From: Solirubrobacteraceae bacterium
GTDB taxonomy: Bacteria > Actinomycetota > Thermoleophilia > Solirubrobacterales > Solirubrobacteraceae
DNA length: 64,000 nt
Reading direction: 5' to 3'
Assembly (NCBI GenBank): GCA_017882455.1
Contig: JADGPL010000008.1
Location: 1-64,000, forward strand
The notes beneath the pieces were generated by a model. That model was not told the DNA's origin, did no database searches, and saw only the letters and a list, made by a program, of their open reading frames with translations. Made by a program: the position numbers and the translations under genes. Shown here in pieces: positions 22,440 to 24,753 of this stretch. Each line of letters starts with the position of its first letter. The first letter of the stretch is position 1.

Positions 22440-24446
22440 TTAGACGATGGAGGCGCTGTCCCGGTTGGCCCGTCGCGCCTGCTCGGCCGGTGAGTCGCGG
22501 GCCGCGGGGGCGGTGACGATCACGCGGCATGCGGCCTTGCGCACCACGTACTTGCTCACCTCTCCCACGTAGCCCTCCAGCGGTCCCCCGCGGCCTCCCA
22601 GGCGAGCCCCGCCGCGGATCAGCGACGGCTCCTCGGCCCCGAGCACGATCGCCTCCACCCCACGCCTGCGGGCCTCGTCGACGATCGCGTAGCCGGCACG
22701 GCGGGTGCGCACGGTGGCCGTGGCCACCTGCACGCCCGTGTACTCCTCCCCCACGGCCTTGGCCCTGGCGAGCACCTGGCGGGCGTGCTTGATCTGGGCT
22801 TCGGGAAGGCTCGCGTCGAGCGGCAGGGACATCGGGATCACGAAGATCCACAGCGCCTCGATGGTGGCGGTGTCGATCGCCGCCTCGTCGGTCTGCTCGC
22901 CCGATACGAGCAGGGCCGCGGTCTGCACGATGTCGTCGTCGAGATCGGCGCCGAACAGGGGCACGAGCACCGAGCCGTAGTCGCGCTCGGGCGCCTGCTC
23001 GGCGCGCAGAACCTGGGGCGAGACGGTCACGCGTTTGAGCAGCGAGGTTTCATCGGCCCGGCGGTAGACCACATACAGGGCGACGCCGGCCGCCATCCAG
23101 CCCAGGCCCACATAGCGGGCGGGCTGGTGCACGATCATCACAGCCACCCACCCGAGGCCGGAGACCAGCGCCCCGAAGGCGGCCGGCAGCGGCAGCTCGC
23201 CGCCGCCGATCCGGATCGACAGGGGCACCCGATAGGGCCTGTCGCGGTCGGCCTCGGAGTAGCGCAGGCGGCAGATGGAGAGGTGGGCGATGGTGAAGGC
23301 GAGCATCGCCCCGAAGGCGTAGCTGCCGACCAGGAAGTCGAGGTTCTCGGGGACCACCAGTCCCGCGGCGATGACGCCGGCGAGGATGATCAGCACGTAG
23401 GGGGTGGAGCGCTCCGGATGCAGGCGTCCCAGCCCACTGGGGATCTGGCGGTTGGTGGAGAGCGAGTAGGCCAGGCGGGAGAGGCCGAGCATGGCCGAGT
23501 TGGCGGCCGCCACGAGCGTCACGGCGGCGAGGGCCGCCACCAGGTACCTCAGCCCCTGCTCCAGCCAGTGGGGGTGCACGTGGGTGACGATCCCGATCAT
23601 CGGGGCGTTCAGGTAGCGGGAGGCCAGGGCGGTGTGCCCGCCACGGACGGGCAGGGCGGTGACGGCGACGAGGGCGATCCCGACGTAGAGGAAGACCACG
23701 GTGGCCGTGCCGCTGGCGATCATCCGCTTGAGCCCCCCGCGGCTGATCCGCACCTCCCCCGCGAGGCCGGAGGCGGACTCGAGGCTCGTGAAGGAGATCA
23801 CCGCCACGGTCAGGGCGAAGACGAGATCCGACCATTTGGGGGCGCTGCCCAGGTGGATGGGATCGAGCAGGGTGTGGGGGTTGAAGAAGAGGGCGAGACC
23901 GAGCACCACGATGAAGGCCTGCAGGGCCAGGTCGCCGGCCACGATGATCCCCACCCGCCGCGCCCGCTTGCCGCCGAAGCCGCGGATGTTGCTCAGCACG
24001 ACCAGGGCGATGAAGGCGAAGGACAGCAGCAGGGCCTCGTCGTGGTCGCCCAGGGGACTCCAGAAGATCCGCAGGTACTGGGTGGCCGAGAAGGCCGTGA
24101 CGGCGACCAGGATCACGTAGTCGAGCAGGATCGCCCAGCCGGCGATGAAGCTCACGAGCTCGTTGAAGGCGTAGCGCGCGAACACCGTGGCGCCGCCGCG
24201 GTCCTGGTGCATGGAGGCGCCCTCCACGTAGGTCATGGCCGTCAGCGTGAAGAGCAGGGCGGCGATCAGGAAGACCACCGGAGTCAACCCGAGGGCGTGT
24301 CCCGCGATGACCCCGAGGGAGAAGTAGATGGCGCTCGCCAGCGAGGAGTAGACGATCGTGAAGAGGATCGGCGAGCCGATGCTGCGGCGGACGATCACGC
24401 GCGAGCGCGCTGCGAGCTCCGAGGGGCCGCTCTCTCCCTCGCTCAT
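22440..24446 (-). CDS. APC-superfamily permease fused to a universal-stress-protein domain
   Basis: A 668-residue protein. About 12 membrane segments (residues 25-465) of the amino acid-polyamine-organocation superfamily carry SSLASAIYFSLG in helix 1 and NIRGFGGKRARR. The C-terminal 180 residues (from RDYGSVLVPLFG) form a UspA-like Rossmann domain ending KAACRVIVTAP. The fusion suggests transport gated by nucleotide or stress signals. It overlaps the small membrane protein upstream (ATGA) and precedes ceoB/ceoC, so K+ or amine transport is plausible. A paralogue is at 59280-61205. Confidence 0.85.
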   Translation of the reverse strand: MSEGESGPSELAARSRVIVRRSIGSPILFTIVYSSLASAIYFSLGVIAGHALGLTPVVFLIAALLFTLTAMTYVEGASMHQDRGGATVFARYAFNELVSFIAGWAILLDYVILVAVTAFSATQYLRIFWSPLGDHDEALLLSFAFIALVVLSNIRGFGGKRARRVGIIVAGDLALQAFIVVLGLALFFNPHTLLDPIHLGSAPKWSDLVFALTVAVISFTSLESASGLAGEVRISRGGLKRMIASGTATVVFLYVGIALVAVTALPVRGGHTALASRYLNAPMIGIVTHVHPHWLEQGLRYLVAALAAVTLVAAANSAMLGLSRLAYSLSTNRQIPSGLGRLHPERSTPYVLIILAGVIAAGLVVPENLDFLVGSYAFGAMLAFTIAHLSICRLRYSEADRDRPYRVPLSIRIGGGELPLPAAFGALVSGLGWVAVMIVHQPARYVGLGWMAAGVALYVVYRRADETSLLKRVTVSPQVLRAEQAPERDYGSVLVPLFGADLDDDIVQTAALLVSGEQTDEAAIDTATIEALWIFVIPMSLPLDASLPEAQIKHARQVLARAKAVGEEYTGVQVATATVRTRRAGYAIVDEARRRGVEAIVLGAEEPSLIRGGARLGGRGGPLEGYVGEVSKYVVRKAACRVIVTAPAARDSPAEQARRANRDSASIV

Positions 24447-24640
24447 CGATCCCGCCCCCTGCGCACCTCGATGTAGGTGCGCCCGATGCCGGCGGCGAGG
24501 AACAGGATGCCGAGCAGCAGGCGCGGCGATATGACGCTGCCCGTCCCTCCGACGATCTGGCCGATCAGCGCCAGCCCGATGACGATCATCGCCAGCGAGA
24601 AGAAGAGCGTTCCCGTTCGGTGCGCCTGTCGACCGTTCAT
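24443..24640 (-). CDS. Small two-TM membrane protein, first gene of the permease/CeoBC operon
   Basis: A 65-residue protein with two hydrophobic segments (about 12-30 and 38-55) and a basic C-terminus. AGGATGAG precedes ATG 24640. The stop overlaps the permease start, so it may be a small accessory subunit. Family not recognised. The triple palindrome (24658-24730) ends 17 bp before its start. Confidence 0.65.
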   Translation of the reverse strand: MNGRQAHRTGTLFFSLAMIVIGLALIGQIVGGTGSVISPRLLLGILFLAAGIGRTYIEVRRGRDR

Positions 24641-24657
24641 CTCATCCTGAGCTTATT

Positions 24658-24753
24658 CCGGGTGGCGCATGCGCCACCCGGCGGGACGGTGCATGCACCG
24701 TCCCGGAGCAGGGTCGCATGCGACCCTGCTGGCTCATGCCGCCCTGCGGTATG
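24658..24753. repeat. Three abutting perfect 24-bp palindromes plus a fourth hairpin
   Basis: Perfect palindromes span 24658-24681 (half-site CCGGGTGGCGCA), 24682-24705 (half-site CGGGACGGTGCA) and 24707-24730 (half-site AGCAGGGTCGCA). Each is centred on GCATGC while the outer arms differ, so pairing is kept and sequence is not. A weaker hairpin, CATGCCGC-CCT-GCGGTATG, follows at 24735-24753. The block fills most of the gap between the end of hppA and the ribosome binding site of the next gene on the same strand. It could be tandem 3'-end hairpins of hppA, a cis-acting RNA of the downstream operon, or a protein-binding array. Confidence 0.9.

What the first reader, a model, noticed from the sequence alone, without database searches (positions are those of the whole stretch)
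24658..24753. Three back-to-back perfect 24-bp palindromes, all centred on GCATGC
Palindromes at 24658-24681, 24682-24705 and 24707-24730 are each perfect over 24 bp. They share the core but have different arms, so every change in one arm is matched in the other. A fourth, weaker hairpin follows at 24735-24753. Chance cannot give this. The block sits between the hppA stop and the Shine-Dalgarno of the small protein/permease/CeoBC operon, so it may be a cis-acting RNA, a tandem processing/terminator array or a site for a cooperative dimeric protein. Keeping pairing but not sequence argues for a hairpin role.
Basis: seen in the sequence. Interest (0 to 1): 0.75.

Follow-up and report, generated by a model that had tools for sequence, protein, structure and literature searches.

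The report
Dispersed tandem perfect palindromes, REP-like family
The three back-to-back mirror-image DNA blocks are one copy of an apparently undescribed short repeat family scattered through a group of uncultured soil actinobacteria, and its stems stay perfectly paired while their sequence keeps changing, which makes it a striking natural case of hairpin DNA being preserved by shape.

Summary
In detail: three abutting, perfect 24-bp palindromes (24658-24681, 24682-24705, 24707-24730). They are not a private regulator of this operon. They are one array of a dispersed family: about 60 units in about 22 arrays in this genome, and 86 distinct arrays (283 units) read from relatives. True arrays were found only in Solirubrobacterales records, and model hits fall in five genera of one family (apart from one isolated palindrome in another family). 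Unit design: ten freely varying but almost perfectly paired arm positions around an invariant CATG core; usually three units at 24-bp pitch; one end often flanked by AACAGC. Arrays sit just after stop codons, rarely between divergent genes, and in-frame inside leuS and an ABC-F gene in two clades. At the hppA locus only 2 of 22 relatives have an array. Identical triplets or dimers at unrelated loci show past mobility; clade-restricted in-ORF arrays show long vertical retention with changes in both arms (72 paired vs 11 single) and no G-U excess. Constraint is on DNA palindromy or hairpin shape, not RNA alone. Best filing: a new REP-like family lacking the GTAG/CGTC tag and, where tested, a Y1 (RAYT) transposase. 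Mobiliser and host function are unknown; an intrinsic-terminator role is unlikely.

The parts
24658..24681 (.). Palindrome 1 (A type) CCGGGTGGCG-CATG-CGCCACCCGG; the unit next to the flank AATAAGC
   Evidence: family alignment
24682..24705 (.). Palindrome 2 (B type) CGGGACGGTG-CATG-CACCGTCCCG
24707..24730 (.). Palindrome 3 (C type) AGCAGGGTCG-CATG-CGACCCTGCT; an identical unit lies in the pheS-pheT gap of the same genome
24652..24657 (-). Outer flank of the A-type unit, AATAAG on the minus strand, in the place where many arrays carry AACAGC
24735..24753 (.). Weaker 8-bp-stem hairpin; likely half-unit relic (CATGCCGCCCTGC repeats CATGCGACCCTGC at 24717-24729); not a full family unit
24443..24640 (-). 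65-aa small protein starting 17 bp beyond the array; no Pfam match

Best explanation
The block is one array of a dispersed, REP-like palindromic repeat family of Solirubrobacteraceae. Each unit is a 24-bp palindrome that folds, on either strand, into the same kind of hairpin: 10 bp of stem closed by a CATG loop. Arrays of two to five units (mostly three) settled mostly just downstream of stop codons. SHOWN: dispersal, design, placement, clean presence/absence at orthologous sites, identical copies at unrelated loci in two genomes, vertical retention in two clades, paired arm changes, invariant core, absence of the RAYT-type transposase family in nearly all carriers tested. INFERRED: the element once moved through an unidentified factor that reads hairpin shape plus CATG rather than arm sequence. 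After insertion, single-arm mutations are restored to perfect pairing at the DNA level, most likely by intrastrand template switching at the hairpin together with selection for the hairpin and its CATG core. Any host role (3'-end structure, supercoil or topoisomerase site, as proposed for E. coli REPs) is secondary and untested.
For: Dispersed copies in the own genome. True arrays only in Solirubrobacterales records in the capped scan; model hits in five genera of family f1, apart from one isolated palindrome elsewhere. 221 of 283 units perfect over all ten pairs, 3 units in 53 of 86 arrays, AACAGC-like end in 45 of 84 (null mean 6.6, max 15). Arms of different units differ at 49.5% of positions, the two arms of one unit at 2.5% (inner eight pairs 1.0%). 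Core: 212 CATG vs 2 real variants among perfect-stem hairpins. Context: 41 codirectional, 25 convergent, 5 divergent, against 87/9/51 for other gaps; 38 of 66 within 15 bp of a stop. In-frame arrays in an ABC-F gene (six species) and leuS (three species), clade-restricted. Orthologous units: 72 paired vs 11 single changes, 40 transversions vs 32 transitions. Sense-strand G-U 5 and A-C 8 of 1670 pairs. Identical triplet at two loci in G159 and identical dimer at three loci in G181. PF01797 found in 1 of 31 genomes searched.
Against: No mobiliser was identified and no target-site duplication was established. Invariant CATG in old copies implies site-by-site selection, more than a passive relic needs. 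Template switching is inferred from the pattern of change, not observed. Within-unit mismatch is somewhat underestimated because detection required a CATG core and at most three mismatches. All named carrier records are MAGs.
Confidence: 0.66

Rival explanations
1. 3'-end RNA hairpins (bidirectional terminators or mRNA stabilisers): the arrays are kept because their transcripts end in, or are protected by, three strong hairpins, and perfect complementarity serves convergent genes on both strands.
For: Placement just after stops, convergent enrichment and divergent avoidance; very stable RNA fold, z -4.7; neighbours are mostly housekeeping genes.
Against: No T-run; read through in-frame in leuS and ABC-F; G-U not favoured on the sense strand although GT pairs are often seen in known REPs (PMC3733652); paired transversions as common as transitions; absent at 20 of 22 hppA orthologues.
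Confidence: 0.17
2. Host DNA-structure sites: cruciform or palindrome sites bound by a nucleoid, gyrase-like or other structure-specific protein that requires the CATG core and a symmetric 24-bp duplex, placed behind genes where transcription builds up supercoils.
For: Core and symmetry are both conserved in old copies while arm sequence is free; strand-agnostic design; placement downstream of genes; very stable DNA hairpin fold, z -8.2.
Against: No binding protein known; sporadic presence among species of one genus, 0 to about 56 units; a GC-rich centre is unfavourable for cruciform extrusion (general knowledge).
Confidence: 0.12
3. Dimeric protein operator of the hppA locus (cooperative tandem sites).
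For: Symmetric sites at near-constant 24-25 bp pitch.
Against: Arm sequence is free while symmetry is kept; array absent in most orthologous hppA loci; genes next to other arrays are unrelated.
Confidence: 0.02
4. Purely mutational relics: palindromes kept perfect only by template switching, with no function or recognition.
For: Paired changes without G-U intermediates; template switching is known to correct quasi-palindromes and restore stems (PMC8794818; PMC3820800).
Against: It cannot keep CATG invariant (212 vs 2) nor, I infer, the fixed 10-bp arm length.
Confidence: 0.03

Closest known systems
REP / BIME / REPIN elements (GTAG and CGTC super-families, Di Nocera et al. 2013, PMC3733652)
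   Same: 20-40 bp palindromes, tens of copies, mostly between codirectional or convergent genes close to stops, sometimes in-frame inside genes including tRNA synthetases, in small clusters, with complementary stem changes.
   Different: No GTAG or CGTC tag (AACAGC-like flank instead); tandem abutting units at fixed 24-bp pitch; perfect palindrome through an invariant CATG core; no Y1/RAYT gene in 30 of 31 genomes searched; almost no G-T pairs; nearly every copy in the own genome has different arms.
Group 3 REPs with perfect palindromes recognised by TnpA-REP (Stenotrophomonas, Marinomonas; PMC8266576)
   Same: Short perfectly paired stems.
   Different: Those are interrupted by 3-4 nt and preceded by GTAG; no TnpA-REP family was found here.
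Rickettsia palindromic elements (RPE; via PMC3733652)
   Same: Palindromic units inserted in-frame in protein genes, including essential ones.
   Different: Different lineage; here tandem 24-bp CATG units, mostly intergenic; sequences not compared.
Template-switch-maintained stems (PMC8794818)
   Same: Paired changes without intermediates.
   Different: Described there for RNA genes; here in a dispersed DNA repeat, with a conserved core as well.

Membership tests
REP (repetitive extragenic palindrome), broad class | Short palindrome in high copy, mainly extragenic and behind genes | tested here: met
REP, GTAG or CGTC super-families | Terminal unpaired GTAG or CGTC tag | tested here: not met
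   flank consensus is AACAGC-like at one end, TCC-like at the other
REP mobilised by RAYT | RAYT / Y1 transposase (PF01797) in the genome | tested here: not met
   absent in G000, in 23 of 24 genus genomes, and in 7 further carriers; controls ring
REP, as transcribed RNA element | G-T pairs tolerated in stems | tested here: not met
   sense-strand G-U 5 vs A-C 8 of 1670 pairs; contrast PMC3733652
Intrinsic (Rho-independent) terminator | G+C hairpin followed by a T-run | tested here: not met
   flank composition
Known structured RNA family (Rfam) | Match at gathering score | tested here: not met
   only two tRNAs in the window
MITE / IS-derived element | Terminal inverted repeats and target-site duplication | tested here: inconclusive
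   identical copies at unrelated loci; flanks share GCTGTT/AAA motifs but no duplication was established
Rickettsia palindromic element | In-frame insertion in genes | tested here: met
   leuS and ABC-F arrays; RPE sequence identity not tested, so no membership is claimed
Operator of a dimeric regulator | Conserved half-site sequence | tested here: not met
   arms differ at 49.5% of positions between units

The most novel reading that the evidence does not exclude
A new class of DNA element recognised by hairpin shape and a CATG core instead of arm sequence, whose palindromes are actively kept perfect at the DNA level (template-switch correction or an element-specific process) over the span of genera, even inside essential coding genes, with a mobiliser unrelated to RAYT.
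Probability: 0.3. Interest if true: 0.8.

Novelty: new variant of a known kind. Interest (0 to 1): 0.62.

Why it matters
Compensatory change in stems is usually read as RNA function through G-U intermediates. This family offers many orthologous natural replicates in which both arms change together with no G-U excess, partly inside coding frames where insertion, retention and loss can be dated. It makes testable whether DNA-level template switching maintains hairpins in nature, and it points to an unidentified factor that moves or reads hairpins by shape.

Tried and rejected
Rfam scan: only tRNAs. Simple GCATGC enrichment: none. RAYT/Y1 transposase: absent except in G006. Phage vehicle: no palindromic array among 32 pattern hits in viral contigs. 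Most pattern hits in other phyla lacked palindromes. Terminator scan: none. Recent burst or concerted evolution within genus g1: rejected, since paralogous units in one genome are no more alike than non-orthologous units of other genomes. One apparent in-ORF array (L256) lies behind a VapC-like ORF rather than inside a real gene. Literature searches for this repeat found nothing in the held library (one query failed).

Full report
WHAT IS THERE. The window holds three perfect 24-bp palindromes at 24658-24681, 24682-24705 and 24707-24730, exactly as reported. They are the only perfect palindromes longer than 18 bp in the 64 kb. Composition predicts 0.02 per window at this length. As single strands they fold into three 10-bp hairpins with CATG loops (RNA z -4.7; DNA z -8.2). 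The fourth hairpin (24735-24753) is weaker and looks like a half-unit relic.

IT IS A DISPERSED FAMILY. A search of the own genome with 201 bp around the block found many partial matches. Each one read proved to be an array of the same design with different arms. A covariance model of the single unit finds about 60 units in about 22 arrays. The relatives and order searches place the family in five genera of one family, with 0 to about 56 units per genome inside one genus, plus one isolated palindrome in another family. Reading the arrays gave 86 distinct arrays and 283 units. Of these, 53 arrays have three units; pitch is 24 in 145 of 197 steps; 221 units are perfect over all ten pairs; and an AACAGC-like flank marks one end in 45 of 84. 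Unit types follow an order, A next to AACAGC, then B, then C.

THE CONSTRAINT. Two random units differ at half of their arm positions, but the two arms of one unit differ at 2.5% (1.0% for the inner eight pairs). The CATG core is essentially invariant: 212 perfect-stem hairpins with CATG against two genuine variants, both at one locus. In a first set of 44 unique units all ten pairs covary. At orthologous loci, for example upstream of lepA in G000 and G022, whole base pairs are exchanged while non-palindromic flank is kept. Along minimum spanning trees there are 72 paired and 11 single changes, 40 transversions and 32 transitions. On the sense strand G-U pairs (5 of 1670) are no commoner than A-C (8). 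Known REPs often show GT pairs (PMC3733652). I conclude that the requirement is a perfect DNA palindrome or hairpin, not an RNA stem alone. Caveats: detection required a CATG core and at most three mismatches, which lowers the mismatch rate somewhat, and pairwise comparisons are not independent.

PLACEMENT AND HISTORY. Arrays lie behind genes: 41 codirectional, 25 convergent, 5 divergent, against 87, 9 and 51 for other gaps in the same loci; 38 of 66 lie within 15 bp of a stop (genes were called with a simple codon-usage script, so individual boundaries are approximate). Neighbours in the own genome are mostly housekeeping genes (lepA, ftsZ, rpsF, rpsG, lysS, glyA, murJ, sigma factors) with no transposase among those tested. 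At the hppA locus only G000 and G023 of 22 relatives have an array. In six species an array lies in-frame in the linker of an ABC-F gene, and in three species in-frame in leuS. On a tree of HppA, ABC-F and LeuRS these two presences fall in single clades (ABC-F with one loss, in G022). So they were most simply gained once each and then inherited, still palindromic, while the surrounding linker diverged. Within genus g1 paralogous units are no more alike than units of other genomes, so there is no recent burst there. In contrast G159 has an identical triplet at two unrelated loci and G181 an identical dimer at three. The family has therefore moved.

MECHANISM. Shown: dispersal, past mobility, long retention, paired change, conserved core. 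Inferred: recognition by shape plus CATG; restoration of pairing by intrastrand template switching, a process documented for stems and quasi-palindromes (PMC8794818; PMC3820800); and selection for the core. The RAYT/Y1 transposase family that is thought to move known REPs is absent from 30 of 31 genomes searched, so the mobiliser is unknown. Transcription termination is unlikely as the general role: there is no T-run, and arrays are read through inside leuS and the ABC-F gene. A host role in supercoil or 3'-end structure remains open.

COMPARISON AND NOVELTY. It works like, and is placed like, REP elements. By the tests made it is not a member of the GTAG or CGTC super-families, nor RAYT-mobilised. 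I file it as a new REP-like family with unusual properties. I found no description of it in the papers searched, which cover open-licence papers only.

Noticed in passing
L214, L223, L241, L249, L261, L267 (ABC-F gene) and L242, L255, L284 (leuS): Palindrome arrays read in-frame inside an ABC-F ATPase linker and inside leucyl-tRNA synthetase, each in one clade.
   Followed up: yes
window 24640-24655, and hppA-downstream loci L165-L178: Conserved TAAGCTCAG just before the ATG of the 65-aa small protein in most relatives; looks like a promoter -10 of a leaderless transcript, and the array sits directly upstream of it.
   Followed up: no
L227 and L257, next to the arrays behind groEL: Inverted repeats TTGGCACTC...GAGTGCCAA resembling the CIRCE heat-shock operator lie close to the arrays.
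   Followed up: no
L218 around the array (offsets -23 and +71): The only core variants seen, CGTG and CTTG, in otherwise perfectly paired units of the own genome.
   Followed up: partly
L215:615-638: A lone perfect palindrome CGCCCGCGCGCATGCGCGCGGGCG inside a predicted ORF, outside any array.
   Followed up: no
L181, L182, L196, L179: In some relatives hppA is followed directly by the TrkA/CeoB-like gene; the small protein and permease are missing from that position.
   Followed up: no
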